The notes beneath the pieces are model-generated. The model had not been told where the DNA came from. It ran no database searches and saw only the letters and a program-made list of their open reading frames with translations. Of a stretch of DNA of 64,000 bases, positions 34,265-58,245 are shown one piece after another. The translations under genes and the position numbers were made by a program. Origin of the DNA: Roseateles saccharophilus (GTDB lineage: Bacteria > Pseudomonadota > Gammaproteobacteria > Burkholderiales > Burkholderiaceae_C); contig NZ_SMBU01000013.1 in the NCBI RefSeq assembly GCF_004342485.1, positions 1-64,000 on the forward strand. The letters are read 5' to 3'. The first letter of the stretch is position 1, and each line of letters starts with the position of its first letter.

Positions 34265-34271
34265 CCGCCCC

Positions 34272-36345
<2,074 letters not shown>

Positions 36346-41718: not shown

Positions 41719-41758
41719 CACGCGCCCACGTTAGGCCGCTGCGGTGAAGAGGCCATGA

Positions 41759-41778
41759 CATGAGCCATGCGGACCACG
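41759..41778. promoter_or_regulatory. 20-bp LuxR-type site between subtilase and gspG
   Basis: The left half CATGAGCC equals that of the site at 51445-51464. The right half CGGACCACG differs by one base from that of the site at 58161-58180. It lies in the 137-bp divergent region, so it could act on both the protease and the secretion operon. Confidence 0.5.
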
Positions 41779-41791
41779 GCGCCAGTCATGA

Positions 41792-41827
41792 ATCCGTCTT
41801 TCACGGCGCGGTCATTGCGGCTTCCTA
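41792..41827 (+). promoter_or_regulatory. Promoter block of gspG shared with the LuxR gene
   Basis: ATCCG, CGGTCAT (41809-41815) and CTTCCTA (41821-41827) occur with exactly the same spacing (17 and 12 bases) at 51470-51505. It ends 28 bases before the gspG start. It is probably promoter sequence; no classical -35/-10 is obvious. Confidence 0.5.
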
Positions 41828-41855
41828 AGCTGCGCCGCCCTGACCCGTTCGGACC

Positions 41856-42281
41856 ATGACCACCCAACACCGCCCCCACCGCCGCCGCGGCTTCACGCTG
41901 CTGGAGTTGCTCGTCGTCATGGTCATCATCGGCCTGCTGGCCGGCTATGTCGGCCCCAAGTTCTTCGGCCAGATCGGCAAGAGCGAGGTGAAGGCGGCCA
42001 AGGCCCAAATCGACGCGCTGCAGAAGTCGCTCGATCAGTACCGGCTCGATGTCGGCCACTACCCCAGCACCGAGCAGGGCCTGGCCGTGCTGGTGGCCAA
42101 GCCCGCCGACGAGCCCAAGTGGGCCGGGCCCTATCTGAGCAAGGCCCTGCCCAAGGACCCCTGGGGCCACGACTACCAGTACCGCGCGCCGGGCGAGCAT
42201 GGCGAATACGACCTGCTCAGCTATGGGCGCGACGGTCGGCCCGGTGGCGAAGGCGAAGACGCCGACATCGTGTCCTGGTGA
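41856..42281 (+). CDS. gspG: Major pseudopilin GspG
   Basis: The 141-residue protein has the prepilin leader HRPHRRRG cut before FTLLELLVVMVIIGLLAG, with Glu at mature position 5. The GspG core follows: GPKFFGQIGKSEVKAAKAQI, YPSTEQGLAVL, LPKDPWGHDYQYR and the end GGEGEDADI. GspG polymerises into the type II secretion pseudopilus. It is separated from gspF by a REP element. Confidence 0.96.
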   Translation: MTTQHRPHRRRGFTLLELLVVMVIIGLLAGYVGPKFFGQIGKSEVKAAKAQIDALQKSLDQYRLDVGHYPSTEQGLAVLVAKPADEPKWAGPYLSKALPKDPWGHDYQYRAPGEHGEYDLLSYGRDGRPGGEGEDADIVSW

Positions 42282-42289
42282 CGAGGATG

Positions 42290-42361
42290 GTGCCCCCACG
42301 TTCGCTTCGCTCTCTGCCCCCCGAGGGGGCGCGTCAGCGCCTTCGGGCGGCCGGGCGGCAC
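42290..42361 (+). repeat. REP-like element between gspG and gspF
   Basis: The 72-bp GC-rich sequence starts GTGCCCCCACG, has a CCCCCCGAGGGGG hairpin and ends GGGCGGCCGGGCGGCAC. An inverted, diverged copy is at 50856-50927. It has the look of the palindromic repeat common in comamonad genomes. It supplies the sequence just upstream of the gspF start. Confidence 0.75.
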
Positions 42362-42365
42362 TGAC

Positions 42366-43550
42366 ATGGCCGAGTTCCACGTCCGCTACCTCGACGCCGC
42401 CCGGCAGACCGCCGAGAGGCGTGTGCAGGCGGCGGACGTGGGCAGCGTCGCGGCGGCGCTGGGCCTGTCGCCGGCCTCGCTGCTCGCGGTGGAGCCAGTC
42501 GAGACCGCACCGTTGAAGGCGCGCAGCGGCCGCTTCCCGCGCCGCCAGTTCGCGCAGCAGCTGGCCGTGCTGCTGCGCGCCGGCATTCCGCTGCTGGAGG
42601 CCCTGCAGACGCTGCAGTCGCAGGACAACCCGCCGGCTGTCGCCGTAGCGCTGACGGGTGTCATCGCGCGCATCCAGCTCGGCGAGTCCTTCTCCGCCGC
42701 GCTGGCCTCGCAGCCGCAGGCCTTCGACGCGCTGTTCGTCGCCGTCGTGGAGGCCAGCGAGCGCAGCGGCCAGGTCGAGCAGGCGCTGTTCGAGCAGGCC
42801 GGCTATCTGGCCTGGGTCGAGCAGCTGCGCGGCAAGCTCGTGGCCGCGGCCATCTACCCGGCCATGCTGATCACGGCGGGCTCGGCCGTCGTGCTCTTCC
42901 TGCTCCTCTTCGTCGTACCGCGCTTTGCCGGGCTGCTGGACGGCGTGGGCGGCGATCTGCCGCTGGCGTCCAGGGCCTTGATCGCCGTGGGCGCCTTCAG
43001 CGGCGCGCATCCGGCGCTGCTGTTGTTGATCACGGCGGGCCTGGTCGCGCTGCCCGTGCTGGCCTGGCAGCGTGGCCTGCGCGAGGCGCTGCAATCGCGG
43101 CTTTGGCAGCTGCCGCTGGTCGGCCCGAAGCTGCATCTGCTGTCCCTGGCCCAGCTCTACCGCTGCCTGGCCATGCTGCTGCTGGCGGGCGTTCCCATCG
43201 TGCCTGCGCTGGTGAATGCGCGCGGTGTCGCGGCAACCCACTTGCGCCCCGCGCTGGACCGCGCCACCGAGGCCGTGCGCCTGGGCGAGCGGCTGTCGGC
43301 CTGCCTGCAGCGCGAGGGCCTGACCACGCCGGTGTCGCTGCGCATGCTGCGCGTGGGCGAGCACAGCGGCGAGTTGGGGGCGATGCTGGCGCAGGCGGCA
43401 GGCTTCTACGACGAGGAGCTGTCGCGGCTGTCGGACCTGGTGACGCGGTTGATCAATCCGGTGTTGATGTTGCTGATGGGGCTGGTGATCGGCACGGTGG
43501 TGGTGCTGATGTATCTGCCGATTTTTCAGTTGGTGGATCAGGTGCAGTGA
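42366..43550 (+). CDS. gspF: Type II secretion inner-membrane protein GspF
   Basis: The 394-residue protein has two T2SSF domains (about 65-185 and 270-385) with FAQQLAVLLRAGIPLLEAL and LYRCLAMLLLAGVPIVPAL, and three membrane segments (about 165-190, 215-235, 365-390). It forms the inner-membrane platform contacted by GspE. The start ATG has only a weak GGGCGG upstream, from the REP element. A 628-bp gap filled by an inverted repeat follows. Confidence 0.95.
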   Translation: MAEFHVRYLDAARQTAERRVQAADVGSVAAALGLSPASLLAVEPVETAPLKARSGRFPRRQFAQQLAVLLRAGIPLLEALQTLQSQDNPPAVAVALTGVIARIQLGESFSAALASQPQAFDALFVAVVEASERSGQVEQALFEQAGYLAWVEQLRGKLVAAAIYPAMLITAGSAVVLFLLLFVVPRFAGLLDGVGGDLPLASRALIAVGAFSGAHPALLLLITAGLVALPVLAWQRGLREALQSRLWQLPLVGPKLHLLSLAQLYRCLAMLLLAGVPIVPALVNARGVAATHLRPALDRATEAVRLGERLSACLQREGLTTPVSLRMLRVGEHSGELGAMLAQAAGFYDEELSRLSDLVTRLINPVLMLLMGLVIGTVVVLMYLPIFQLVDQVQ

Positions 43551-43604
43551 TGGGGCGGGTACGCAGGTTGCCTCTTCGTTGCTACGGCTTGATGGCCAAG
43601 CCCA

Positions 43605-44143
43605 GCCGGGAGTTCGCCCCGGCGGGCGACCTACTTTCTGGCCCGCCAGAAAGTAGGCAAAGAGCGGCCCCTGCAAAACCGCCCCTGCGGGGTTCCCTGC
43701 GATGCTCGAAGCCCGGGGCCGCGCCCAACTCACTTCGCTACGCTCCGTTCAAACAATGGGGCGCGAAGTCAGAACTTGAGGCTCGCTGCGCTCGCGCCCC
43801 GGGCTCCTGCGCTTCTCGGCGGTTTAGAAGGGGAGTTCCCCAAACAGCCGAACAGCCAACAGCCAAGCCCGAAAGCCGGCTGGCGCCGGCTGTTCATCAC
43901 CCCCCCTCTGAGCCCGCCGAGCAGCGCAAGGACTTGAGGGCGCGCGCGCAGCGCACTTCGAGAACTGACTTCGCGCAACTGTTTGAGCGCAGCGTAGCGA
44001 AGCGAGTTTTGCGCGAGCCCTCAAGGCCTGAGCAGCACAGGGCAGCCCGCTGCGAAGCAAAGGGCCGGGCGGTTCAGGGGCGACTTTTTGCCTACTTTTT
44101 GGTCGCCCAAAAAGTAGGTCGCCCGCCGGGGCGAACTCCCGGC
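43605..44143. repeat. 539-bp imperfect inverted repeat splitting the secretion operon
   Basis: The outer ends are inverted copies: GCCGGGAGTTCGCCCCGGCG at 43605 and its complement ending at 44143. Each arm next carries a perfect 12-bp hairpin, CCTACTTTCTGG/CCAGAAAGTAGG (43630-43657) and CCTACTTTTTGG/CCAAAAAGTAGG (44091-44118), with four-base loops. Interior parts such as CTTCGCTACGCT and GCGCGAAGTCAG also recur inverted in both halves. No gene is supported within it. The rest of the 43551-44178 gap holds nothing recognisable. Confidence 0.8.
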
Positions 44144-44178
44144 ATGGGCCTCGCCACAAACCCAGCGGAGCAAAAACC

Positions 44179-45697
<1,519 letters not shown>

Positions 45698-45717
<20 letters not shown>

Positions 45718-46768
45718 ACGCCTGCTGCTGGCGGGCGACCGGGTGCTGGACACCCAGGGCCAGGCCTGGCCCGACTTCGCGGCCTGGTGCGCCGCCCATG
45801 CCGGTGCGCGCGCCGAGCTGCTGGTGGGTGCCGAACAGGCCCACAGCCTGCTCGTGCCCGCCGACCTGCCGCTGGCCGACGCGGACGCCCTGCAGGGCTA
45901 TGCGCGACTGCAGTTCACGCACTACTTCGGGCCGGCGGCTCAGCAATGGCCGCTGGCCAGCAGCGAGCGCGTCGCCTGCGCGCTGGCCGACGCCGACCTG
46001 GCTGCGCTGCAGGCCACGGCAGCCGCGCAGCGCGTGCGCATCGCCTCGCTGCGGCCGAGCTGGACGCTCTGCGCCGCGCAGGACGGTGACACCGCCGTCA
46101 TCGACGGCGACATGCTGACCTGGCTGCGCCGCAGCGGCGGCCGCCTCGTCGACCTGCAGCAGCGCCATGTCAGCGACGAACTGCTGCGCGAACTGGAAGG
46201 CGCGCGCATCGCCCCTGCCATCGACCTTCTCACCGAGCCCGGCGCGCGCCTGGGCCCGGACTTCATCGCGCAGCCGTCGCGCATGCGGCCGCTGGCCTGG
46301 GCCTGGGCCGCCGCCGCGGCTGCGGCCTGCGTTCTCGTCGTGCTGCAGGCCCAGGGCCAGCGTGAGGAGGCCCAACGCCTGGCCGAGCAGTCCGCCGTGC
46401 TGGACCGCCTCGCCCGCCCCGCCGCGGCAGCCAAACCCAAGCCGCCCAACCCGGCCGCGCGTGCCCGCGCCTGGGCCGTGTCGAACCAGCTCGGCACCGA
46501 CTGGGCCGCGCTGTGGGCCGACGTCGAGCGGGCGCTGCCGCCCGGCCTGCAGCTCGCCGCGCTGGATCTGGACCGACAGTCACTGCGCCTCGAAGGCCAG
46601 GCGGCCGATGCCGACGCGGTGACCCGCCTCGTCGACCGGCTCACGCTGCAGGCCGCGCCAGGCGACGAGGTGGTGCTGACCCGGCTGCAGAAGCCCGACA
46701 CGGTGGCGGACGAAACAGGCGGCGCGCTGCGCTTCGAACTCGTGCGTCGCGCGGGAGGCGCGCGATGA
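45698..46768 (+). CDS. GspL/PilN-like inner-membrane assembly protein
   Basis: The 356-residue form starts at GTG 45698 with GGAAGAA upstream; GTG 45668 is an alternative. A cytoplasmic domain (1-195) precedes one membrane segment at about 198-218 (AWAWAAAAAAACVLVVL), then a coiled and ferredoxin-like periplasmic part. This layout fits GspL or a PilM/PilN relative. Identification rests on order behind gspE and topology. Confidence 0.75.
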
Positions 46769-47280
46769 AGCGCTGGCTCGACATGGCCCGCCGCCTCGGC
46801 TGGCCGGCCGCGCTGGCGCTGCTGCTGACGCTGGCCGCCGTCGTCGGCGCGGCCTGGCTGCCGCGCGAGCAGCAGCGGCTGGACGCCGAGCGCCAGCACC
46901 TCGCCAGCCGCCGCGCCGCGCTGCAGCCGCGAGCCTCTTCCAGCATTCCCACGGACGGTGGCGCCGCGCTGGCTGCCAGCCTGCCCCCCGACGCCGAGCG
47001 CCAGGCCCGCACGGCCGCGTTGCTGGCGCTGACGACCGAGCTCGGCCTTCCCTGGCCGCGCAGCGAATTCCGCTATCAGGCCGACCGCGAGCTGGGCCTT
47101 GCACAGTACCGCGTCGCCATGCAGCTCAGCGGCCGCTACAGCACGCTGCGCGGCTTCGTCGCCGAGGCGCTCAGGCGCGACCCCGCGCTGGCGCTGGAAA
47201 CCCTCCGCCTGCGGCGCGATGCAGACGGCCAGCTCAAGGCCGAGCTGGCCTGGGTGCTGCACATGCAGGTCACGAAATGA
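46765..47280 (+). CDS. GspM/PilO-like inner-membrane protein
   Basis: The 171-residue protein has one membrane segment (about 13-32), a short coiled region with REQQRLDAERQHLASRRAAL, and a small alpha/beta domain ending ELAWVLHMQVTK. The start follows GGGAGG and overlaps the previous stop. GspM or PilO proteins of this size pair with GspL/PilN. Sequence signals are weak and the call is by position. Confidence 0.68.
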   Translation: MKRWLDMARRLGWPAALALLLTLAAVVGAAWLPREQQRLDAERQHLASRRAALQPRASSSIPTDGGAALAASLPPDAERQARTAALLALTTELGLPWPRSEFRYQADRELGLAQYRVAMQLSGRYSTLRGFVAEALRRDPALALETLRLRRDADGQLKAELAWVLHMQVTK

Positions 47281-47783
47281 AGCGGCCCTCGCCACGACAG
47301 CTCGCGCTCTTCGGCGCCCTCGGCCTCAGCCTCGCAGCCACGCTTTGGGTGTCGCGCGACGACGAGGCCGACACCGCCGCAGTCGCCAGGCCGCGCCACG
47401 CGATCTCGGCCACGCCAACGCCGGCATCGGCAATGGCCGACTGGCCCGGCCCCGCCGCCAGCGCCCGCGCGGACTGGCCGGCCCTCGACCCGCAAGCCCG
47501 CGCCGCCTGGGGCGAGACCCCGCTGGCGCCACCGCCGGCCCAGGCCGAGGCCGCGCCGCCGCCGCCCAGCGCGCCGCCGTTCCCGTACCAGTTCGTCGGC
47601 CGCATGACCGACTCGCGCCCCCGGGCCGTCCTGAACAACGCGCAGCGCAGCGCGGTGGTCGCCGCGGGCGACGTGGTGGACGGCCAATGGCGCGTCGACG
47701 CCATCGAGGCCGGTGGCTTGCGCCTGACCTATTTGCCCCTGGGCCTGGCCCAGTTCGTCTCCTTTGCCAGACCCTCCGCATGA
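47277..47783 (+). CDS. GspC/PilP-like periplasmic connector
   Basis: The 168-residue protein has one N-terminal membrane helix (about 8-24), a Pro/Ala-rich linker and a small beta domain (FPYQFVGRMTD...AVVAAGDVVDGQWRVDAIEAGGLRLTYLP) like the GspC homology-region or PilP fold. Such proteins link the inner-membrane complex to the secretin. It overlaps both neighbours by four bases. Confidence 0.72.
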   Translation: MKRPSPRQLALFGALGLSLAATLWVSRDDEADTAAVARPRHAISATPTPASAMADWPGPAASARADWPALDPQARAAWGETPLAPPPAQAEAAPPPPSAPPFPYQFVGRMTDSRPRAVLNNAQRSAVVAAGDVVDGQWRVDAIEAGGLRLTYLPLGLAQFVSFARPSA

Positions 47784-49999
47784 GCCGCGTTCCCGTCATT
47801 GCCTTGGTCCTGCTGCTGGCCGCCTGCGCCAGCCACCCTGCTCTGCGTGAGGCCGAGGTGCTCGCCCGGCAGGGTGAACACGAGAGCGCCTGGCGGCTGC
47901 TGCGCGATGCCGCCGCGGCCTCGCCGCAGGACGAAGCACTGCGCAGCGCGCGCCAGCGCGAGGCCGAGCTGGGCCTGCTGAGCCTGGCTGCGCAGGCCGA
48001 GAACGCCCGCGCGGCCGGCCAGCTGGAGGCCGCCGCCGACCTGCTGCTCCGCATGGAAGCCATAGACCCGCTCGCGCCGCGCACCCGTGCGCTGCAGCTC
48101 GCGCTGGGCCGCGCGCGCCGCCACGAGGCCCTGCTCACCCAGGCCGAGCATCAGCTGCAGGCTGGCCAACGGGATGCCGCGCGCGAGGCGGTGGCCCAGG
48201 TGCTGGCGGAAGACCCCGGCCAGCCACGCGCCCAGGCACTCCAGCAGAAGCTGCGCCGGGCCTTCGCGCCGCCGCTCGCAGCGCCCACGCTCGCGGCGGC
48301 CTACCAGAAGCCCGTGAGTCTGGAGTTCCGCGATGCGCCGCTGCGCACCGTCTTCGAGGCATTGAGCCGCGGGGCCGGCGTCAACTTCGTGTTCGACAAG
48401 GACGTGAAGGCCGATGCCCGCGTCAGCGTCTACCTGAAGGACGTCAGCGTCGACGAGGCCATGCGCATCGTGCTGAGCACGCAGCAGCTGGAACGCAAGC
48501 TGCTCAACGACAACTCGGTGCTGATCTACCCCAACACGCAGCAGAAGCAGCGCGAGCACCAGGAGCTCGTCACGCGCAGCTTCTACCTGAACAACGCCGA
48601 CGTGAAGCAGGCCCAGGCGCTGGTGCGCATGATGGCCAAGACGCGCGACGTCTTCATCGACGAGCGGCTGAACCTGCTGGTGGCGCGCGACACGCCCGAG
48701 GTGATCGCGATGATCGAGCAGCTCGTCGCCGGGCTGGACCTGCCCGAGCCCGAGGTGATGCTCGACGTGGAGGTGCTCGAGCTGGGCACCGACCGCAGCG
48801 CCGAGGCCGGCCTGAACTGGGCCACCGACGCGACCTACGGCAGCACGGACACCGCGACCATGGTGCCCTGGAGTTCCCGCGGCAGCTTTCGCACGCTGGT
48901 GGCCAACCCCGTCGTCGCGGCGCGGCTCAAGGGCGAATCGGGCGCGAACAACCTGCTGGCCAACCCCAAGCTGCGCGCTCGCAACAAGGAGAAGGCCAAG
49001 ATCCAGATCGGCGACCGCGTGCCCGTGTTCACGAGCACGTCGACGGCCAACGTCGGCGTGTCCACGGCCGTGACCTACATCGATGTCGGCATCAAGCTGG
49101 AAGTGGAACCCACCGTGCAGCTGGACAACGACGTCGTCATGAAGGTCAACCTCGAGGTCAGCAGCCTGGGCGTGAAGGAAACCTCGGGCGGCCCGCAGCC
49201 CACCAGCGCCTACCGCATCGGCACGCGCAACGCGTCCACGTCGCTGCGGCTGCGCGACGGCGAGACCCAGGTGCTGGGCGGACTCATCAACGACGAAGAC
49301 CGCAAGACCATCGCCGGCGTGCCCTATGTGTCCGAGACACCGCTGCTCGGGCGCCTGTTCGGCGTGCACACCGACAGCCGCAAGAAGACCGAGATCGTGC
49401 TGCTGATCACGCCGCATGTGCTGCGCAACCTCAGCCTGCCGGACGCCGGCCAGACCGTGCTGGCCTCCGGCTTCGACGCCAACCCGGGTGCCGAGGGCCT
49501 GAGGCTGCGCGCCTCGCGCGGCAACGCGGCGGCGCCGTCGCTGAGCGACACCACGCCGGCGGGCGCCCGACCGTTGTCTGCGGCCATCGCCAAGGCCCAG
49601 GCGGCCCGGTCGCAGGGCCAGCAGCAGGCCCTGGCTCCGGTCCAGGCCCCGGCCCAGCCCGAGGAGGCCACCGTCGAGCTGCAGCTGGTGGACAGCATCG
49701 CGGCGGGAGAGAACCTGACCGTCACGCTTGCCAACCGGTCCAGGGCCACGGTGGCCGGCAGGATGACCTATGACGCGGCCCTCTTCACGCGGGCCGACGT
49801 CGACGACGCTCAGGCCGGCAGCGGCCTCGCCGAGGTGGAGCTGGCGCCCGAAGCCCAGCAGGTGGTGGTGCTGCGCGCCCGGCCCGACGCGGCGGGGCGC
49901 TCCGGCTCGCTCCAGTTCGTGAACGCAAAGGCCACGGGGCCCAACGGCGAGGCGCTGAAAGTGCGGGTGGAGGGCGGCTCCCATGTCGAGGTTCGCTGA
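47780..49999 (+). CDS. gspD: Secretin GspD-like lipoprotein with cohesin-like extension
   Basis: The 739-residue protein has a lipobox LLLAAC (acylated Cys16), a TPR-like N-terminal part (about 25-170), secretin N-domains (VSLEFRDAPLRTVFEALS; NADVKQAQALVRMM) and the secretin core (VPVFTSTSTANVG, VGIKLEVEPTV, VLGGLINDEDRKT, VPYVSETPLLGRLF, EIVLLITPHV). Residues about 620-739 add a beta-rich cohesin-like domain (ENLTVTLANRSRATVAGRMTYD). It forms the outer-membrane channel. No N0 domain is obvious; the N-terminal helical repeats are unusual for GspD. Confidence 0.9.
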   Translation: MSRVPVIALVLLLAACASHPALREAEVLARQGEHESAWRLLRDAAAASPQDEALRSARQREAELGLLSLAAQAENARAAGQLEAAADLLLRMEAIDPLAPRTRALQLALGRARRHEALLTQAEHQLQAGQRDAAREAVAQVLAEDPGQPRAQALQQKLRRAFAPPLAAPTLAAAYQKPVSLEFRDAPLRTVFEALSRGAGVNFVFDKDVKADARVSVYLKDVSVDEAMRIVLSTQQLERKLLNDNSVLIYPNTQQKQREHQELVTRSFYLNNADVKQAQALVRMMAKTRDVFIDERLNLLVARDTPEVIAMIEQLVAGLDLPEPEVMLDVEVLELGTDRSAEAGLNWATDATYGSTDTATMVPWSSRGSFRTLVANPVVAARLKGESGANNLLANPKLRARNKEKAKIQIGDRVPVFTSTSTANVGVSTAVTYIDVGIKLEVEPTVQLDNDVVMKVNLEVSSLGVKETSGGPQPTSAYRIGTRNASTSLRLRDGETQVLGGLINDEDRKTIAGVPYVSETPLLGRLFGVHTDSRKKTEIVLLITPHVLRNLSLPDAGQTVLASGFDANPGAEGLRLRASRGNAAAPSLSDTTPAGARPLSAAIAKAQAARSQGQQQALAPVQAPAQPEEATVELQLVDSIAAGENLTVTLANRSRATVAGRMTYDAALFTRADVDDAQAGSGLAEVELAPEAQQVVVLRARPDAAGRSGSLQFVNAKATGPNGEALKVRVEGGSHVEVR

Positions 50000-50845: not shown

Positions 50846-51431
50846 CGCGCCCACGCGCCGCCGGGCCGCCCCAAGGCGCGCCGGCCCCCGTGGGGGGCAG
50901 GAGGCGTACTCGCCGACGTGGGGGCACAAAACTCGCGGTTTCACCTACCTCTGGCTGCTCTTCGCGCTGGCCCTGGGCGGCGTCGCGCTCGCGGCCCTGG
51001 GCGAACTGGAGCAGACGCGCCAGCGCCGCGAGCGCGAGGCCGAGCTGCGCTTTCGTGGCGAGGCCATCGCCGCGGCGCTGGGGCGCTACGCCGAGCGCAC
51101 GCCGGTCGGCCATCTGCCGCTGCCCCAGCAGCTGGAGGAGCTGCTGGCCGACACACGCTTCCCCAAGCCGCAGCGGCACCTGCGCCAGCTCTACGCCGAT
51201 CCCTTCACCGGCAGGCCCAACTGGGAGCTGGTGCTCGGCCAGGCGACCATCGCCGCCGGCGTCGACAGCCAGGGCAAGGGGACCCCGAAACCACAGGCCG
51301 GCCGCGGCATCGTCGGCGTGCGCAGCAGCTCGACACGCCACCTGCTCGCGACCGCCGACGGCCGCTCGACGGCACATGACTGGGTCTTCGTTGCGCCGCC
51401 TCCCGCGGACAAACCCATCCATTCGGAGTAG
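50832..51431 (+). CDS. Atypical pseudopilin with REP-derived leader
   Basis: The 199-residue form starts at ATG 50832 with GGAAG upstream (ATG 50820 is possible). A 36-residue leader encoded mostly by a REP element ends HKTRG before FTYLWLLFALALGGVALAA. Mature position 5 is Trp, not the usual Glu. The rest (REREAELRFRGEAIAAALGRYAE, FPKPQRHLRQLYADPFTG) matches a pseudopilin-like family of Burkholderiales. It ends the secretion cluster. Confidence 0.78.
   Translation: MRTGDAPTRRRAAPRRAGPRGGQEAYSPTWGHKTRGFTYLWLLFALALGGVALAALGELEQTRQRREREAELRFRGEAIAAALGRYAERTPVGHLPLPQQLEELLADTRFPKPQRHLRQLYADPFTGRPNWELVLGQATIAAGVDSQGKGTPKPQAGRGIVGVRSSSTRHLLATADGRSTAHDWVFVAPPPADKPIHSE
50856..50927 (-). repeat. Inverted, diverged REP copy inside a pseudopilin gene
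   Basis: On the minus strand it begins GTGCCCCCACGTCGGCGAGT and contains CCCCCCACGGGGG and GGGGCGGCCCGGCGGCG, matching the 42290-42361 element. It is translated as the basic leader of the last pseudopilin. Confidence 0.7.
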
Positions 51432-51444
51432 GGCCTGTGCACAC

Positions 51445-51464
51445 CATGAGCCGAACGGCTCATG
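51445..51464. promoter_or_regulatory. 20-bp palindromic LuxR-type site upstream of the LuxR gene
   Basis: CATGAGCCGAACGGCTCATG has perfect 9-bp arms around a central AA. It shares the CCG-NN-CGG core and 20-bp size with the sites at 41759, 52452 and 58161. It begins 14 bases after the last pseudopilin stop and suggests autoregulation. Confidence 0.6.
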
Positions 51465-51469
51465 CCGAC

Positions 51470-51505
51470 ATCCGGCCTTCAACGCACGGTCATCCGCCCT
51501 TCCTA
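51470..51505 (+). promoter_or_regulatory. Promoter block of the LuxR gene shared with gspG
   Basis: ATCCG, CGGTCAT (51487-51493) and CTTCCTA (51499-51505) repeat the pattern and exact spacing of 41792-41827. The block lies 78 bases before the LuxR start. Confidence 0.5.
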
Positions 51506-51582
51506 GAGTTTCGACCTCGTGTGTCCGCTGCGAAGTTTTGTTCCTTCGCGCACGACGCGCCCCCACTGCTCAAGCGCCACCC

Positions 51583-52434
51583 ATGACACACAACGACGCC
51601 CTGGCCGTGACGCTGAACCCCAGCGATCCCGTAGAAGCCATCGTGCGCGCGGCCGAATCCGCACTCAACGTGCGCCGCCGCTACCAATTCTTCGTCTGGA
51701 CGCAGAGCTATCTGGGCCGGCTGATCCCGCACCAGCTCGCCGTCTGCGGCAGCTACGACCGTGCCTCACGGGAACTGCTGTTCGACGTCTTCAACAGCTT
51801 CGGCCTCGAACCCGTGCTGATGGACGCCCTCGGCGACGCGCGCAGCCTGCTGATGCGCCATCTGCAAGGCTGCTGGCTGGAAGCACGCTGCCGCCCGACC
51901 ATCGTCGCGACGGCCGAGCTGTCCTTCGCCTCACTGGGCACGGTGCGCGACGCGCTGCTGGCGGCGCAGTTCGAGAAGATCCTCGTGCACGGCATGTCGC
52001 GCCCGCAGCGCCCGCAGGAGATCGAGAGCTTCTTCGCCTTCGCGGCGCAGGACGGTGCCGCGCTCGCTGCGCATGCCGCGCGGCTGGAACTGCTGCTCCC
52101 GCATGTGCACGGCGCCTGGCAGCGCGTGCAGGCGGTCGAGCGCGATGTCGGCACGGGCGGCGCGGCCGTGCCCCCGTCGATCAAGGTCGGCGGCGTCACG
52201 CAACGCGAACGCGAGATCCTCACCTGGCTGCGCGAGGGCAAGAGCAACCAGCAGATCGCCGAGCAGCTCGGCATCAGCGCGCTGACAGTGAAGAACCACG
52301 TGCAGAAGATCCTGCGCAAGCTGGGCGCCGCCAACCGCGCCCAGGCCGTGGCGCAGGCGATGTCGCTGCAGTTGCTGGAAAGCATGCCCGGCGCGCAGGC
52401 CGCGGCCCGCCGCCGCGACGTGCCCCTGACTTGA
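51583..52434 (+). CDS. epsA: LuxR-family regulator, EpsA-like (PEP-CTERM associated)
   Basis: The 283-residue protein starts at ATG 51583. A long N-terminal domain (RRRYQFFVWTQSYLGRLIPHQLAVCG, FGLEPVLMDALG) resembles EpsA regulators linked to exopolysaccharide and PEP-CTERM/exosortase clusters. The C-terminal GerE helix-turn-helix is about residues 205-265 (TQREREILTWLREGKSNQQI, GISALTVKNHVQKILRKL). No receiver domain is seen. The 20-bp palindromes at and around it are good candidates for its binding sites; that is inference. Confidence 0.75.
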   Translation: MTHNDALAVTLNPSDPVEAIVRAAESALNVRRRYQFFVWTQSYLGRLIPHQLAVCGSYDRASRELLFDVFNSFGLEPVLMDALGDARSLLMRHLQGCWLEARCRPTIVATAELSFASLGTVRDALLAAQFEKILVHGMSRPQRPQEIESFFAFAAQDGAALAAHAARLELLLPHVHGAWQRVQAVERDVGTGGAAVPPSIKVGGVTQREREILTWLREGKSNQQIAEQLGISALTVKNHVQKILRKLGAANRAQAVAQAMSLQLLESMPGAQAAARRRDVPLT

Positions 52435-52451
52435 TGGCCTCAGGGTTTGCA

Positions 52452-52471
52452 CGTAGTCCGTACGGACTGTG
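52452..52471. promoter_or_regulatory. 20-bp LuxR-type site upstream of the first PEP-CTERM gene
   Basis: CGTAGTCCGTACGGACTGTG has a perfect 14-bp palindromic core AGTCCGTACGGACT. Its left half is identical to that of the site at 58161. The 254-base gap also has a GTCAT at 52497-52501, an inverted pair CCCGCT/AGCGGG and GGATCC repeats, and GGAG before the next start. Confidence 0.65.
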
Positions 52472-52688
52472 AACCAAATTGCGCTCCGGTGCGCATGTCA
52501 TCGGCCGCCAGAAGAATGCCGGCCATCGGATCCACGGATCCCCGCTCTTTGACAAGCGGGTCTTCATGACCCAGGCGCCCAAGGCCACCGCCGATTGCGA
52601 TGCAGCGATCCAGGGGAGGCAGCCAGGCGTGACGGCGTCCAGCCAAAAGCTGGGGCCCCCACCACCAACCCTCCTTGGAGTGATTCAC

Positions 52689-53453
52689 ATGAAGATCAAG
52701 TCCCTCGCCGCCGCGGCCCTCGCGGTCGTCGCCGTCTCGCAAGCCCACGCCGGCATCGCCGTTATGACCAACGGCAACTCCGAACTCTTCTTCGTTCTCG
52801 GCAACGACAAGGGCTCCTTCCTGCTGGACACCGGCGTCACCGTCAACGCGCTGAAGAGCGCCAGCTTCAGCTCCTACGTCCAGAACGTGACCAACCTGGT
52901 CGGCTTCTCGAGTTTTGTCGCCGGCAGCACCCCGCAGTGGGCGCTGGCCGTGTTCGACGGTACTGGCACCACGGGCTACTCCAACGTTGAACTGATCTCC
53001 ACCCGCGCGACCACCACGCCCACGCTCGCCTCGATCAACAACACGACCTTCAAGGGTTCCGTGTTCAACAACACCGGCCTGATCGCCCAGACTGCCAGCA
53101 ACCAACTCGACAGCGCCACCAGCGACCACATCGCCGTGGCCGATGGCAGCAGCTTCAACGCCGTCGGCACGGCCGGCTATTTCGGCTCCAACTTCTTTGC
53201 CATCGGCCAGGCGAGCAACCAGATCGGCAATGCGGTGGGCACCAGCTCGACGCTGCTGGACTGGAAGGGCAACGGCACCAACTCCCTCACCAAGGTGACC
53301 ACCGCCACGCTGACCGGCTACAGCGCCTCGTTCGACGGCTCCACTCTGTCCATCTCGGCCCCCGTCGCTGCCATTCCCGAGCCCGGCAGCTACGCGATGC
53401 TGGCCGCCGGCCTCGCTGCCGTCGGCTTCGTCGTGCGCCGCCGCCGCGCCTAA
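52689..53453 (+). CDS. PEP-CTERM surface/secreted protein 1
   Basis: The 254-residue protein starts at ATG 52689 after TTGGAG. It has a signal peptide (MKIKSLAAAALAVVAVSQAHA), a Ser/Thr/Asn-rich body, and the sorting tail IPEPGSYAMLAAG then VVRRRRA. Exosortase cleaves such tails at the inner membrane. The opening of the mature part (NSELFFVLGNDKGSFLLDTG) resembles that of the protein at 56988. Function is unknown. Confidence 0.92.
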   Translation: MKIKSLAAAALAVVAVSQAHAGIAVMTNGNSELFFVLGNDKGSFLLDTGVTVNALKSASFSSYVQNVTNLVGFSSFVAGSTPQWALAVFDGTGTTGYSNVELISTRATTTPTLASINNTTFKGSVFNNTGLIAQTASNQLDSATSDHIAVADGSSFNAVGTAGYFGSNFFAIGQASNQIGNAVGTSSTLLDWKGNGTNSLTKVTTATLTGYSASFDGSTLSISAPVAAIPEPGSYAMLAAGLAAVGFVVRRRRA

Positions 53454-53471
53454 CTCACCGTCCTGTGCCCC

Positions 53472-53495
53472 GCCTGGTGGCGATCACCGCCAGGC
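53472..53495 (+). terminator. Hairpin after PEP-CTERM gene 1
   Basis: GCCTGGTGG pairs with CCGCCAGGC (one G-U) around a six-base loop, starting 18 bases after the stop. There is no T tract, so it is terminator-like or an mRNA 3' stabiliser. Confidence 0.45.
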
Positions 53496-53574
53496 AGGAG
53501 CAGTCAATCCGGCCCGCGGCGCCGCCGCGCTGGCCGTGGCCTCTTACATCCCTTCTTCCTCTGCGAGTCCACTC

Positions 53575-55059
53575 ATGAAACTCAAGCTTATCGCCATGGC
53601 CGCCCTCGTGGCCGCCGGTTCCGCCCACGCGCTGTCGCCCGCCGCCATCGACACGGCCCGCGCCAATGGCACGCTGAAGGAAATCCGCCTGGTCGGCTCT
53701 TCCGCCTATCGCCTCGCCATCGCTGGCCACATCCAGACGATCTGCCAGGCCGGCACGATCGACGTCTTCTTCTCGGCCGCCAACCTGATCGCCAACGGCG
53801 ACGGCGCCGGCTCGGGCGCCCGCGCCTACTCCTGCACGCTGGGCACCGCCCTGGGCAACTACGCCGCCGGCACGCCGATCCTGATCCACAAGCGCGACAC
53901 CGGTGGCTCCATCATCGGCGTGGCCAACGTCGCCGCCAACGACGCCACGACCGTCATGATGAAGGTCAGCGCGGCTTCGTGCTCGGCCCCGGTCGCTTAC
54001 ACCAACATCACCACCAAGACGTCCCAGTGCTCGCTGACTGAGAACGTGGCGCCCGACGCCGGCTTCTCCGACCTCGAGCCCAACATGCTGAATCAGTCGC
54101 CCAACCTGATCGACAACACGCTGGGCGACCCGACGAGCGGCTCGAAGGCGCCGGTCAACCTCTCCGCGCTGACCATCCAGCCTTACTGGCAGGCCATCTT
54201 CGGCGTGGCCGTCAACCTGAAGGCCTACCGCGCCCTGCAGGCCGCCCAGGGCCTGGCCCAGGACGACACCGACGCCAACCGTCCCAGCCTGTCCAAGAAC
54301 TGGATCCGCAGCGTGCTGACCGGCAACGTCGATACGAGCTCCGCCGGCCTGCAAGGCTGGGGTCTGGTGCTCGGCACCGGTGGCAACGGCAAGACCGTCA
54401 ACATCTGCCGTCGCGACCCGGGTTCGGGCACGCAAGCCACCACGCAGGCCTATTTCCTGCAGAACCCCTGCAATCCGGCCGAGAGTCTGGCGGCTGCCCG
54501 CCAAGCCGGCGCGACCAAGCCGGCCCCCAACGGAAACACCGGCGGCGTGAACGTGATCGAGAACTCGTCGACCGGTGACGTGCTGAACTGTCTGACCGCC
54601 GCCGACAACGACGCCGCGACGGACTACGCCATCGGCTTCTTCAGCCGCGAGAACGTGGAAACCGGCAAGCAGTGGCGCTATGTCCGCGTCGACGGCGCGC
54701 TGCCGAACCGCTACATCGCTGGCACCGTGCCGAGCGGTGCCGTGAACGGCAGCTACGACTTCGTCGGCGAAGGCACGATGCAGTGGAACACCGCCAAGGT
54801 GAGCGCTAACGCCAACCTGCTGGCCGCGCTGACCAACATCGCCACCGTGTCCAACACGCCGGACGCGATCGCCGCACTGCCCGTCACGTCCTCCGCCAAC
54901 TCGCCCGACGGCGTGATGGCCACCCCGTTGGTGTGGTCCAACATCCAGGCGAGCTGGACCTCGCTGACCGCCGCCCAGCAGCCCTACTCCTCGCGCCTGC
55001 TGCACGCCACGCAAGTGAACGGCGTGAGCGACAGCTGCTCGATCTACAACACGTTCTAA
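53575..55059 (+). CDS. Exported phosphate-binding-like protein A
   Basis: The 494-residue protein starts at ATG 53575 with signal peptide MKLKLIAMAALVAAGSAHA. It shows periplasmic binding-protein traits: KEIRLVGSSAYRLAIAG near the N-terminus and the PstS-like anion loop RRDPGSGTQATT, plus GVAVNLKAYRALQ. Several paired cysteines occur. It has no PEP-CTERM tail. The same architecture is repeated in the next gene at roughly three quarters identity by eye. Ligand and role are unknown. Confidence 0.82.
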   Translation: MKLKLIAMAALVAAGSAHALSPAAIDTARANGTLKEIRLVGSSAYRLAIAGHIQTICQAGTIDVFFSAANLIANGDGAGSGARAYSCTLGTALGNYAAGTPILIHKRDTGGSIIGVANVAANDATTVMMKVSAASCSAPVAYTNITTKTSQCSLTENVAPDAGFSDLEPNMLNQSPNLIDNTLGDPTSGSKAPVNLSALTIQPYWQAIFGVAVNLKAYRALQAAQGLAQDDTDANRPSLSKNWIRSVLTGNVDTSSAGLQGWGLVLGTGGNGKTVNICRRDPGSGTQATTQAYFLQNPCNPAESLAAARQAGATKPAPNGNTGGVNVIENSSTGDVLNCLTAADNDAATDYAIGFFSRENVETGKQWRYVRVDGALPNRYIAGTVPSGAVNGSYDFVGEGTMQWNTAKVSANANLLAALTNIATVSNTPDAIAALPVTSSANSPDGVMATPLVWSNIQASWTSLTAAQQPYSSRLLHATQVNGVSDSCSIYNTF

Positions 55060-55116
55060 GCAGGGCACTGCTCGGGGCGGGTGCCTGTCACCTGCCCCGA
55101 GTCTTGCCTCGATACA

Positions 55117-55165
55117 CCCGGGCTCAAGGCCCGGGCCTTTCAATGAGCCCGGCGTATTTTTTTTT
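55117..55165 (+). terminator. Intrinsic terminator after protein A
   Basis: CCCGGGC (55117-55123) pairs with GCCCGGG (55129-55135), GGGC/GCCC can form an alternative stem to 55150, and a run of nine T follows near 55156-55164. It is the clearest terminator of this cluster. Confidence 0.8.
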
Positions 55166-55229
55166 AGGTTTTACCGTGTTGTTGCGGTCGAAACCTTCAG
55201 CACGGCCTCAACTACAGGTCGCCGGGAAG

Positions 55230-55279
55230 GCTATTCATTGCACATCTGAAATGGTGAGCCATCGTGTGCAGCGAATAGC
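55230..55279 (+). promoter_or_regulatory. Long hairpin in the leader of protein B
   Basis: GCTATTCATTGCACA (55230-55244) pairs with TGTGCAGCGAATAGC (55265-55279) with two mismatches and a 20-base loop, then TCTTTTG. The gap 55166-55329 is poorer in GC than the genes. It may be an attenuator or a regulator-binding site ahead of protein B. Confidence 0.45.
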
Positions 55280-55329
55280 TCTTTTGCGTTTGGCGCCGCC
55301 GTAAGCGGTATTTTTCAGGGAGTCAACTC

Positions 55330-56820
55330 GTGAAGATCAAGCTCATCGCCATCGCCACTCTGGCGGCTGCAAATTCGGCCCAAGCCCTTTCCCCTACGGC
55401 CGTTGACACGGCGCGCGCCAACAGCACGCTGAAGGAAATCCGCCTGACCGGCTCCTCCTCCTACCGCTTCGTCATCGCCGGTTATGTCCAGACGATCTGC
55501 CGAGCTGGCACCATCGACGTCTTCCACTCCGCCGCCGACCTGATCGCGAGCGGCGATGGCGAGGGCTCGGGCGCACGCGCCTACTCCTGCACGCTGGCCA
55601 CGGCCCTGGGCAACTACGCCGCTGGCACGCCGGTACTGATCCACAAGCGAGACACCGGCGGTGCAATATTTGGCGTGGCAAACGTGGCCACCAACGACGC
55701 AACCACCAAGATGATGAAGGTGAGCGCGACCTCCTGCTCGCAACCCACGGCCTACACAGACATCACCACCCGTACCTCCCTCTGCTCGCAAACCGAGCAG
55801 GTCGCACCCGACGCCGGCATCTCAGACATTGAGCCACCTTTGCTGAACCAGTCGCCCAACCTGACGGACAACGTCCTGGGCGACCCGCAAAGCAATTCAA
55901 AACTGCCTGTCGATCTCTCCACGTTGACCGTGCAGCCCTACATGCAAGTCATCTTGGGTGTGGCCGTCAACCTCAAGGCCTACCGAGCCCTGCAGGCGAC
56001 CCAAGGCCTCGACACCGCCAAGGATGACGACGCCAACCGTCCCAGCCTACCCCGAACCTGGATTCGCACCGCCATGACCGGTGCCGTAGACACAAGTGCG
56101 GACGGCCTCGAGGGTTGGGGCTTGGTATTGGGCACCAGCGGCAACGGCAAAACAGTCAATATCTGCCGTGAAAACCCAGGTTCAGGCACGCAGGCTGCTG
56201 CCCAAATGTACTTCCTCAACAACACCCCCTGCGACCCGGGCCACGGCCTAAGTGCTGTCCGCCAAGCAACCGCAACCAAGCCGTTGCCCAATGCCAACGG
56301 CAGCACCCCAAATACGATTGAAAACCTATCAGAGGGCGACGCACTTGCCTGCCTGACCAATGCCGACAACAACGCCTCCACGGCCTATGCGCTGGGTATC
56401 TTCAGCAAGGGAAACGTCGAGGCTGGCACCAAGTGGCGCTATGTCCGCCTCGATGGCGCGCTGCCTAACCGCTACATCTCCGGCAGCATGCCAAGCGGCG
56501 CCGTGAATGTCAGCTACGACTTCGTGGCCGAGGGCACGATGCAGTGGAACACCGCGAAGGCGAATGCCAACGCCGACCTGCTGGCTGCGCTGAACGCGAT
56601 CGTCACCCAGTCCAACACGCCGGCCGCGATCGCCGCATTGCCTGTCACCTCATCGGCCAACTCGCTCGACGGCGTAATGGCCAGCCCGCTGGTGTGGTTC
56701 AACATCGCACCTTTTTGGAGCCAGCTGACCTCAGCCCAGAAGCCCTACGCCTCGCGCCTGCTGCACGCCATCCAGAGCAACGGCGTGAGCGATAGCTGTT
56801 CGGCCTACACCACGTTCTAA
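55330..56820 (+). CDS. Exported phosphate-binding-like protein B (tandem paralogue)
   Basis: The 496-residue protein starts at GTG 55330 after GGGAG. The signal peptide is KIKLIAIATLAAANSAQA. It repeats protein A along its full length, including ENPGSGTQAAAQ and the C-terminal DGALPNRYISG and SRLLHAIQSNGVSDSCS. The downstream flank (56821-56900) also resembles the flank of A, but without the T run. Its codons use more A/T than A. Confidence 0.82.
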   Translation: MKIKLIAIATLAAANSAQALSPTAVDTARANSTLKEIRLTGSSSYRFVIAGYVQTICRAGTIDVFHSAADLIASGDGEGSGARAYSCTLATALGNYAAGTPVLIHKRDTGGAIFGVANVATNDATTKMMKVSATSCSQPTAYTDITTRTSLCSQTEQVAPDAGISDIEPPLLNQSPNLTDNVLGDPQSNSKLPVDLSTLTVQPYMQVILGVAVNLKAYRALQATQGLDTAKDDDANRPSLPRTWIRTAMTGAVDTSADGLEGWGLVLGTSGNGKTVNICRENPGSGTQAAAQMYFLNNTPCDPGHGLSAVRQATATKPLPNANGSTPNTIENLSEGDALACLTNADNNASTAYALGIFSKGNVEAGTKWRYVRLDGALPNRYISGSMPSGAVNVSYDFVAEGTMQWNTAKANANADLLAALNAIVTQSNTPAAIAALPVTSSANSLDGVMASPLVWFNIAPFWSQLTSAQKPYASRLLHAIQSNGVSDSCSAYTTF

Positions 56821-56987
56821 GCATGGCATCGCCCGGGGCGGATGCCTACCGCCTGCCTCGGGAAACTGCTTTGATAGCCCGGACTCCAAGGCCCGAGACA
56901 TTCAATCAAAGAGCCGGCACTCCAGCTGATACGTTTCCGCAAGGCTGACAGATACCTACCGCTTCGCCGCGCTCACGAGGACACCGC

Positions 56988-58139
56988 ATGAACCCGACCG
57001 CACTCCAGACAACCCGCTGCCTCGTGCGCCGCGCCTGCATGACCACCGGCCTTCTGTGCCTTGGCCTCACCTCGCAGGCTGCATTGGCTGAGATCGGCAT
57101 TGGCATTGGCATGGGATTCTCGGCACAGTATCCGAACAATCCAGAGCTGTTCCTGACCCTACTGGATCAGACCACGGCACAGATGACCTACACCCTCGAC
57201 CTCAACGTCAGGGCCGCAACGTTCTTCATCAATGCCCAGCAGGACAGCGGCAGCTACCTCTTCTTCACGCTTGATCCCAGTACGGACGCCGCGCTTCAGA
57301 CCTTCGTGAATGCAGCCGGGACCAACCTCAGCACCACTCGCTGGGCCGTACTTGGATTCAACGATCCACTGTCCGGCGCCGCCAACAGAGTGCTCTACAG
57401 CACGATGACCAACAACGGAGACGTGGCCACTCAGGCCGCGAATTACGACGCACTGTTCAAGACCACCAATGGCACCCTTCGGCAAAACAACGCCTTGGCA
57501 AGCTACCTCGGTGCGCTGAACAACGCCACCACCGACCCTCACCTCATCACGATGACGACCTTGAAAACAGCGTCATCCTTTGGCAGCAGCCTAGCCACGG
57601 CATCCGATTCCATCTACGCCAACAAAGTGCATGGCTGGGCGAACGCTGCCAACAACGGCGATGGTGATTGCCTTTACAGCAGCGGGCTGTGCGTAGGGAA
57701 TCCTGTCGGCACGTCGTCGTGGTTCTATCGAACCCAGTTGTCCTCGACGAGCAACATCGGCAAAGTCGCCGTCGACGAGTTCGACAACCTCACCAACGAC
57801 GGCTACTGGGGCTTCATCAAGGACCCGAACTCGAACAAGTACGTGCTGAGCTACACCCTGCCCGGCTCCAACCCCAAGAGCCTGGTCAGCACCGACGCCG
57901 GCCGTGCGCGCCTGTCGATCACCGACTACAGCGCCAGCGCCGGGCCCACGCGTCTGCTCACGGTCGGCCAGGACGACATCGCCAACGCCGGCATCCAGGT
58001 GGCGGCCTTTGCCAATGCCGCCAGCGTCAGCCCCGTGCCCGAGCCGCAGACCTGGGGCCTGATGGCACTGGGCGGCCTGCTGGTGGCTGCACGCGCGCGC
58101 CGCGAGCGCCGCAGCGCCGGCCTCTCGCACCGCGCCTGA
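56988..58139 (+). CDS. PEP-CTERM surface/secreted protein 2
   Basis: The 383-residue protein has a long signal region (residues 1-34, ending ALAE) and mature start GIGIGMGFSAQYPNNPELFL, distantly like PEP-CTERM protein 1. The tail VPEPQTWGLMALGGLLVAAR then RRERR is a PEP-CTERM signal. The first two thirds (to about 57750) have mixed codon use and lower GC. The last 380 bases return to very high GC, suggesting a mosaic gene. Function is unknown. Confidence 0.9.
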   Translation: MNPTALQTTRCLVRRACMTTGLLCLGLTSQAALAEIGIGIGMGFSAQYPNNPELFLTLLDQTTAQMTYTLDLNVRAATFFINAQQDSGSYLFFTLDPSTDAALQTFVNAAGTNLSTTRWAVLGFNDPLSGAANRVLYSTMTNNGDVATQAANYDALFKTTNGTLRQNNALASYLGALNNATTDPHLITMTTLKTASSFGSSLATASDSIYANKVHGWANAANNGDGDCLYSSGLCVGNPVGTSSWFYRTQLSSTSNIGKVAVDEFDNLTNDGYWGFIKDPNSNKYVLSYTLPGSNPKSLVSTDAGRARLSITDYSASAGPTRLLTVGQDDIANAGIQVAAFANAASVSPVPEPQTWGLMALGGLLVAARARRERRSAGLSHRA

Positions 58140-58160
58140 ACAGGCGTTTCCTCGCAGGCG

Positions 58161-58180
58161 CGTAGTCCGTTCGGACTACG
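58161..58180. promoter_or_regulatory. 20-bp LuxR-type palindrome upstream of tpsB
   Basis: CGTAGTCCGTTCGGACTACG has 9-bp arms around central TT. It is followed 16 bases later by TCATCGCCCCTTC, resembling the TCAT...CTTC part of the promoter block at gspG and the LuxR gene. Confidence 0.65.
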
Positions 58181-58245
58181 TCGCTGCGTCGCGCTTCATC
58201 GCCCCTTCGCCGCGGCTCGCGACACTGAAATCCACTTTTCGGGAG

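What the first reader, a model, noticed from the sequence alone, without database searches (positions are those of the whole stretch)
41759..58180. Four matching 20-bp palindromes define a probable EpsA-like regulon
Sites at 41759-41778, 51445-51464, 52452-52471 and 58161-58180 share size and the CCG-NN-CGG core (CCA in the first). They lie upstream of gspG/subtilase, the LuxR gene itself, PEP-CTERM gene 1 and tpsB. One regulator may tie type II secretion, sorted surface proteins and two-partner secretion into a single surface programme.
Basis: partly seen in the sequence, partly recalled or inferred. Interest (0 to 1): 0.78.

Follow-up and report, generated by a model that had tools for sequence, protein, structure and literature searches.

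The report
Phosphate-starvation switch for surface secretion genes
Matching 20-base palindromes mark the operons of a bacterial gene cluster for secreted and surface proteins; comparison with relatives suggests they are binding sites of the cluster's own LuxR-type regulator, placed just upstream of phosphate-starvation control sites.

Summary
All four palindromes sit at the stated coordinates; in the 5.77-Mb genome the degenerate pattern has one other match. A fifth site (41839-41858) was missed.

The motif is conserved: a matrix from the window's four sites finds 169 sites against 14 in a reversed control in 80 loci around related LuxR genes. In the genus, 11 of 20 genomes have the LuxR gene and the same 11 have the box. 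Consensus: CATGRKCCGWWCGGMYCATG.

So the regulon is supported, but as one local cluster: type II secretion operon, LuxR gene, PEP-CTERM/PstS-like genes, tpsB-tpsA. No box was found at other PEP-CTERM or exosortase genes examined.

New: behind the boxes lies TTCAY-N6-GTCAY-N10-(-10), a Pho-box layout, clear at gspG and epsA, partial at PEP1 and tpsB. In this genome its strict form occurs only at gspG and at pstS. The two unnamed secreted proteins have predicted PstS-like folds.

Best reading: PhoB and the LuxR-type protein jointly switch on a phosphate-scavenging secretion and surface programme. Binding is predicted, not shown.

The parts
41759..41778 (.). Box 1, upstream of gspG (divergent subtilase on the other side)
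   Evidence: 17.6 bits; same place in a close relative reads CATGAGCCGAACGGCTCATG
41839..41858 (.).
   Evidence: 22.6 bits; pair 80-81 bp apart also in L053, L054, L057, L070, L073
41800..41831 (+). Pho-box-like core promoter of gspG: TTCAC-N6-GTCAT-N10-TAAGCT
   Evidence: one of two matches in the genome; the other is the pstS promoter
41856..42281 (+). gspG, first gene of the T2SS operon
   Evidence: TIGR01710 183.7 bits
42366..51431 (+). rest of the T2SS gene run (gspF, gspE, PilN-like, secretin gspD, pseudopilin-like ORFs, unassigned ORFs)
   Evidence: order kept in relatives
39853..41721 (-). subtilase (S8 peptidase), divergent from gspG
   Evidence: PF00082; found in 21 of 80 related loci
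51445..51464 (.). Box 2, upstream of the LuxR gene (autoregulation inferred)
   Evidence: (29.9 bits)
51478..51509 (+). Pho-box-like core promoter of the LuxR gene: TTCAA-N6-GTCAT-N10-TAGAGT
   Evidence: aligned with relatives
51583..52434 (+). EpsA-like LuxR-type regulator, 283 aa
   Evidence: GerE PF00196; TIGR03020 167.5 vs cut-off 170; predicted fold, best PDB matches RhlR and CviR
52452..52471 (.). Box 3, upstream of the PEP-CTERM/PstS-like genes
52497..52517 (+). single Pho-like half-site and -10-like hexamer: GTCAT-N10-AAGAAT
   Evidence: e.g. L062 has GTCAC-N10-CAAAGT at this place
52689..53453 (+). PEP-CTERM protein 1
   Evidence: PF07589 30.5 bits
53575..55059 (+). PstS-fold secreted protein A (no Pfam family)
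   Evidence: AlphaFold pLDDT 89.1; 13 best PDB fold matches are phosphate-binding proteins; R-x3-SGT conserved
55330..56820 (+). PstS-fold secreted protein B, 74% identical to A (not modelled itself)
56988..58139 (+). PEP-CTERM protein 2
   Evidence: PF07589 22.2 bits
58161..58180 (.). Box 4, upstream of tpsB
58195..58226 (+). Pho-like core promoter of tpsB: TTCAT-N6-TTCGC-N10-GACACT (second half-site degenerate)
   Evidence: e.g. L066 reads TTCAT-N6-TTCAC-N10-GATACT
58277..59941 (+). TpsB (two-partner secretion pore)
   Evidence: PF03865, PF08479
59944..63999 (+). TpsA exoprotein, runs past the window end
   Evidence: PF05860

Best explanation
The palindromes are operators of the LuxR-type protein encoded among them. 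A dimer binds each 20-bp box, centred about 62 bp (about 70 bp at gspG) upstream of the start of transcription inferred from the -10-like hexamer. Directly downstream, after 13 to 21 bp, lies a PhoB-type site in place of a -35 hexamer (two half-sites 11 bp apart, complete at some promoters and partial at others), then 10 bases, then the -10. When phosphate is scarce PhoB~P occupies the Pho-like site; the LuxR-type protein adds a second input and also controls its own gene. Together they switch on one cluster: a type II secretion system, two PstS-like exoproteins, PEP-CTERM surface proteins and a two-partner-secreted exoprotein. Shown by computation: the motif, its conservation and linkage to the LuxR gene, the promoter layout, the same element at pstS, the predicted PstS-like fold. 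Inferred: that this LuxR protein binds the box, that PhoB binds the core, activation rather than repression, helical phasing, and the scavenging role.
For: Motif conserved near related LuxR genes: 25 against 2, 169 against 14, 154 sites above 15 bits against about 2 reversed; 1 of 154 centred in mapped coding DNA; 65 of 80 loci keep at least one site after 17 doubtful hits are dropped. Genus: LuxR gene in 11 of 20, box in the same 11, reversed control 0 of 20 (Fisher 6e-6, not corrected for kinship). Family sample: box in 9 of 22 genomes with the gene and 10 of 128 without (p 2e-4); the reversed control is in 3 of 22 and 8 of 128. A box also stands before the gene in L061 (27.4 bits), L079 (16.8) and L130 (17.7), where no other cluster gene was detected. 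Core: TCAY-N10-nAnnnT downstream of 100 of 137 kept sites, 4 in the mirror position. The strict Pho pattern has 2 matches in the genome, gspG and pstS of pstSCAB-phoU-phoBR, reversed 0; in the genus 65 matches in 20 of 20 genomes against 2 reversed. Of 38 rows read downstream of the held matches 14 are pstS; others include PhoX, GDPD and a phytase-like PEP-CTERM protein. gspG-type matches lie in the same 11 genomes: next to gspG or gspF in the 5 read, 9-10 kb from the LuxR gene on its contig in the other 6. PstS-like fold with R-x3-SGT.
Against: No binding or expression data. Most boxes lie in one cluster, so linkage to the LuxR gene and to the cluster are hard to part, and related loci are not independent. 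In the family sample 13 of 22 genomes with the gene lack the strict box, and 5 of the 12 boxes in the other 9 are not within 10 kb of the gene on its contig. Column-permuted palindromic matrices give 17 to 122 hits at 12 bits against 197 real. Of the four window promoters only gspG matches the strict Pho pattern; epsA has TTCAA as first half, PEP1 one half-site, tpsB a degenerate second half. 37 of 137 sites have no such element in the scanned span. 15 of 80 loci have no kept box above 15 bits. In Aquabacterium-type gspG promoters a Pho box stands without a clear LuxR box. A profile comparison does not join the exoproteins to PstS beyond the R-x3-SGT stretch (probability 0.3, E 0.2), Pfam finds nothing, and TM-scores normalised by the query are 0.30-0.39. 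Spacing groups near 32, 41-45 and 49-55 largely follow promoter class, so helical phasing is weakly supported.
Confidence: 0.75

Rival explanations
1. The boxes are operators of this LuxR-type protein, but it represses or tempers the cluster, with PhoB the only activator.
For: A box sits before its own gene and a second gspG box overlaps the start codon, as in negative autoregulation; at the P. aeruginosa lasI promoter PhoB competes with a LuxR-type protein (PMC7082139, passages).
Against: The main boxes lie upstream of the Pho-like element and do not overlap the -10.
Confidence: 0.15
2. The boxes belong to another transcription factor; the LuxR gene is only a passenger of the cluster.
For: Most sites are inside one cluster, so co-occurrence with the LuxR gene could be co-inheritance.
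Against: A 20-bp dyad fits a GerE-domain dimer (recalled); a box lies within 400 bp upstream of the gene in 36 loci, window included, and in three loci without detected cluster genes, two of them weak; none in six diverged relatives without the cluster, L092, L118, L120, L122, L124, L125.
Confidence: 0.1
3. Sites 3 and 4, which follow stop codons closely, are transcript hairpins or terminators, and only sites 1 and 2 are operators.
For: They start 18 and 22 nt after a stop codon and are of the CGTAGTCC type rather than CATGAGCC.
Against: No terminator-like call covers either, though a minus-strand call at 52480-52495 lies next to site 3; relatives have CATG-type boxes after the LuxR gene, e.g. 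L066, L068, L116; the GTCAY-like/-10 element follows at 45-46 bp as at epsA.
Confidence: 0.06
4. The core element belongs to another OmpR-family regulator with 11-bp direct repeats, not PhoB.
For: Such half-sites are shared by several OmpR-type regulators (recalled); the cluster promoters have TTCAY where pstS has GTCAC.
Against: The strict pattern finds pstS, PhoX and GDPD genes in the genus, and Aquabacterium-type gspG promoters read TTGTCACAAAGCTGTCAG, close to the E. coli Pho box of tandem CTGTCAT with a 4-bp linker (PMC3511308 passages).
Confidence: 0.1

Closest known systems
Hxc type II secretion / Psp (DING) / FhaB-like locus of Pseudomonas fluorescens SBW25 (PMC2225411 passages; PMC5082522 passages and section 8)
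   Same: T2SS genes beside a PstS-like exoprotein and a large haemagglutinin-type exoprotein; the exoprotein is made in phosphate limitation, with a putative Pho box.
   Different: In SBW25 hxcR is not phosphate-induced; here the first T2SS promoter itself carries the best Pho-like element. The passages that I read name no LuxR-type regulator or PEP-CTERM gene there. The exoproteins here lack the Pfam PstS signature.
Caulobacter ElpS with its adjacent T2SS (PMC2996285 passages)
   Same: Phosphate-starvation exoprotein with an adjacent T2SS.
   Different: ElpS is a lipoprotein whose release depends on the T2SS; no second regulator appears in the passages seen.
PrsK/PrsR sigma-54 regulon of PEP-CTERM genes (PMC1569441 and PMC9850573 passages)
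   Same: A conserved DNA motif upstream of PEP-CTERM genes with a dedicated regulator.
   Different: That motif carries a -24/-12 sigma-54 promoter and marks mostly single-gene PEP-CTERM operons; this one is a LuxR-type dyad before a Pho-like promoter and marks secretion operons.
EpsA (TIGR03020), XrtB/PEP-CTERM-associated LuxR-type regulator
   Same: Nearly full-length similarity, E 4.1e-49.
   Different: Just below the family cut-off and no exosortase on the contig.
LasR/PhoB at the Pseudomonas aeruginosa lasI promoter (PMC7082139 passages)
   Same: A LuxR-type regulator and PhoB meet at one promoter.
   Different: There the sites overlap and the proteins compete; here the sites are separate.

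Membership tests
EpsA equivalog (TIGR03020) | score above the curated cut-off | tested here: not met
   167.5 against 170 bits
EpsA equivalog (TIGR03020) | association with an XrtB exosortase locus | tested here: not met
   both exosortases of the genome on other contigs; tblastn of these two finds none in the 80 related loci at 1e-8; the XrtB type itself was not tested
LuxR/GerE-type regulators | C-terminal GerE HTH | tested here: met
   PF00196 73.3 bits
LuxR/GerE-type regulators | binds a dyad of about 20 bp | not testable with these tools
   dyad found and linked to the gene; binding not tested
AHL-binding LuxR receptors | autoinducer-binding Pfam domain | tested here: not met
   no such Pfam match at E 0.001; predicted fold resembles RhlR/CviR and GAF domains
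PhoB-dependent (Pho box) promoters | two half-sites 11 bp apart replacing the -35, 10 bases before the -10 | tested here: inconclusive
   met in strict form at gspG, with TTCAA first half at epsA, partial at tpsB, one half only at PEP1
PhoB-dependent (Pho box) promoters | same element at pstS in the same genome, with phoB present | tested here: met
PhoB-dependent (Pho box) promoters | PhoB binding and low-phosphate induction | not testable with these tools
   none
PstS/DING phosphate-binding proteins | fold nearest to PstS | tested here: met
   best 13 PDB fold matches are phosphate-binding proteins; predicted model only
PstS/DING phosphate-binding proteins | phosphate-ligand motif R-x3-SGT (role recalled) | tested here: met
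   R 34 of 35; S, G, T 35 of 35 rows
PstS/DING phosphate-binding proteins | PF12849 sequence signature | tested here: not met
   no PF12849 among 35 proteins
PrsR/sigma-54 PEP-CTERM regulon | -24/-12 element TGGCMY-N5-TTGC upstream | tested here: not met
   none in L016, the PEP1 locus; PEP2 and tpsB not scanned for it

The most novel reading that the evidence does not exclude
A two-key promoter family: the operons of a phosphate-scavenging secretion and surface cluster (T2SS, PstS-like exoproteins, PEP-CTERM proteins, two-partner secretion) are read by PhoB together with a self-regulated LuxR-type protein whose GAF/autoinducer-like domain senses an unknown second signal, so the machine is built only when phosphate is low and that signal is present.
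Probability: 0.5. Interest if true: 0.75.

Novelty: new variant of a known kind. Interest (0 to 1): 0.62.

Why it matters
It gives a predicted operator and regulon to an uncharacterised branch of EpsA-like regulators, predicts that a T2SS with PEP-CTERM and two-partner-secreted proteins serves phosphate starvation, and names two uncharacterised exoproteins as likely phosphate binders. All three can be tested with reporters and gene removals in freshwater Roseateles or Pelomonas strains.

Tried and rejected
Genome-wide PEP-CTERM/exosortase regulon: not supported; one pattern match outside the window; 11 of the 20 PEP-CTERM loci outside the window were held and scored, best 11.2 bits, the other 9 were covered only by the pattern searches. 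The off-cluster match C1:250645 scores 7.8 bits with the refined matrix and lies within long open frames: treated as chance. The off-contig box of G150 (C23:274048) is its gspG site on another contig, not a trans target. 17 Aquabacterium-type gspG-side hits above 15 bits were dropped because they overlap the -10 of a Pho-like promoter. Terminator reading of sites 3 and 4: no call covers them. A consensus sigma-70 -35/-10 scan of 51400-58400 found none, 0.8 expected, so it says little. Sequence searches of the exoprotein found nothing useful in Pfam or in the PDB (none; one match at E 0.52).

Literature, all as listings: (PEP-CTERM, EpsA, LuxR) 0 papers; (type II secretion, two-partner secretion, PEP-CTERM) 0; (PEP-CTERM, phosphate starvation) 3; (PEP-CTERM, palindrom, exosortase, regulator) 1, a cyanobacterial zinc paper; further listings. 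Passages were seen of PMC1569441, PMC9850573, PMC2225411, PMC2996285, PMC7082139, PMC5082522 (also one section) and PMC3511308; no paper was read whole. By these searches I found no report of this regulon in the held open-access library; other papers are not covered.


Full report
1. Observation. The four sites are present as described. A pattern that fits all four has one further place in the 5.77-Mb genome, the reversed control having one. A fifth site, CCTGACCCGTTCGGACCATG at 41839-41858, lies 80 bp beyond the first and covers the gspG start codon.

2. Is the motif real beyond this genome? An alignment of the window LuxR protein (51583-52434) with 11 relatives was used to fetch 80 loci (L052-L131, the best 80 of 302 confirmed places; many held to 10 kb on each side, some cut by contig ends). 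A matrix from the window's four sites alone gives 169 against 14 at 13 bits in the 80 loci, and 170 against 31 at 12 bits in the 73 more distant ones, 62 of 73 with at least one site. Twenty column-permuted palindromic matrices at 12 bits gave 17 to 122 against 197 real in the 80 loci, so composition explains part of the weak hits. An iterated matrix gives 154 sites above 15 bits (window included) against about 2 reversed, 1 of them centred in mapped coding sequence. 17 of the 154 were set aside as doubtful, leaving 137, of which 132 are outside the window, in 65 of 80 loci. Consensus: CATGRKCCGWWCGGMYCATG.

3. Does it go with the LuxR gene? In the genus, 11 of 20 genomes have the gene at E 1e-20 and the same 11 have RTRRKCCGWWCGGMYYAY, with no reversed match in any. 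In a family sample of 150, 9 of 22 genomes with the gene and 10 of 128 without have TGRKCCGWWCGGMYCA; the reversed control is in 3 of 22 and 8 of 128, so the second figure is background. Of the 12 boxes in those 9 genomes, 7 are within 10 kb of the gene. The genus result partly reflects that the boxes lie in the same cluster; but boxes also stand before the LuxR gene in L061, L079 and L130, where no other cluster gene was detected, the last two being weak. Diverged relatives without the cluster (L092, L118, L120, L122, L124, L125) have no box above 15 bits.

4. What the sites control. The cluster is conserved (lower bounds, of 80 loci): gspD 56, PstS-like protein 51, tpsA 47, tpsB 45, gspE 45, gspG 39, PEP-CTERM 2 and 1 in 26 and 24, subtilase 21. 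The 137 kept sites (window included) fall before the LuxR gene (38 sites, 36 loci), just after it (26, 24), on the gspG side (23, 16), more than 2.5 kb downstream (29, 26; tpsB in the window), and elsewhere (21).

5. The core promoter. DNA behind the boxes shows TCA repeated with 11-bp period, then 10 bases, then a -10-like hexamer. TCAY-N10-nAnnnT follows 100 of 137 kept sites and stands in mirror position at 4; an earlier count on all sites in a narrower span was 80 of 154 against 1 of 152. Spacing falls in groups near 32, 41-45 and 49-55, about a helical turn apart but largely one group per promoter class. This is the layout of a Pho box in place of a -35 (E. coli: tandem CTGTCAT with a 4-bp linker overlapping the -35; PMC3511308 passages; the 10-base distance to the -10 is recalled from phoA). 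The strict form KTCAY-N6-GTCAY-N10-TANNNT has two matches in the genome, gspG and the promoter of pstS-pstC-pstA-pstB-phoU-phoB-phoR. Over the genus it has 65 matches in 20 of 20 genomes against 2 reversed. I read 38 rows from the 30 loci held, 34 distinct matches: 14 rows are pstS, 5 gspG/gspF, and others include PhoX, GDPD, a phytase-like PEP-CTERM protein and fasciclin-type proteins, with several unassigned. In the window the epsA element has TTCAA as first half, tpsB a degenerate second half and PEP1 a single half-site, so the Pho reading is strong for gspG, good for epsA and weaker for the other two.

6. The exoproteins. 53575-55059 and 55330-56820 are 74% identical and match no Pfam family. 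The model of the first (pLDDT 89.1) has phosphate-binding proteins as its 13 best PDB matches (E 1.3e-8 to 3.1e-3, query-normalised TM 0.30-0.39). R280 is kept in 34 and G163, D166, S284, G285, T286 in 35 of 35 rows, with the R-x3-SGT spacing of the genome's own PstS. A profile comparison with PstS is not significant, so this is a resemblance in fold and motif.

7. The regulator. GerE domain plus an N-terminal domain; the model's best PDB matches are RhlR and CviR, with GAF domains further down. No autoinducer-binding Pfam match. Its signal is unknown.

8. Mechanism and novelty. Best reading: a PhoB and LuxR-type two-input switch for a phosphate-scavenging secretion and surface cluster. The nearest known arrangement that I saw is Hxc/Psp/FhaB-like in P. 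fluorescens SBW25. New here, as prediction: a LuxR-type operator, its pairing with Pho-like promoters, the PEP-CTERM members, and Pho-type control of the T2SS itself. No experiment was available.

Noticed in passing
window 34266-34382 (+): TPP riboswitch (Rfam RF00059, 62.5 bits) upstream of a thiamine gene group (DAO-type oxidase, ThiG, kinase/TMP synthase).
   Followed up: partly
window 58246-58269 (+): A hairpin with a T-run (CCGGCCCCTTGCACAAGGGGCCGG) sits between the inferred tpsB promoter and the tpsB start; a similar stem shows in L058 and its beginning in L052. A possible attenuator.
   Followed up: no
window 53575-56820: Tandem duplicate PstS-like exoproteins, 74% identical.
   Followed up: partly
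L174 and L188: In two relatives with the LuxR gene, a phytase-like PEP-CTERM protein (Pfam read in L174; L188 by similar N-terminus) follows a strict Pho-type promoter elsewhere in the genome.
   Followed up: partly
L168, L178, L189: A small fasciclin-type protein (Pfam read for L168 only, the others by similar N-terminus) is divergent from pstS and has its own Pho-type element.
   Followed up: no
L085:375-505, L112:820-950 and others: Aquabacterium-type gspG promoters carry TTGTCACAAAGCTGTCAG, close to a textbook Pho box, without a clear LuxR box.
   Followed up: partly
L128:10827-11561, L129:10826-11533: A second EpsA-like gene in opposite orientation right after the first.
   Followed up: no
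own genome: 22 PEP-CTERM matches and 2 exosortases; only two of the PEP-CTERM genes are in this cluster.
   Followed up: partly
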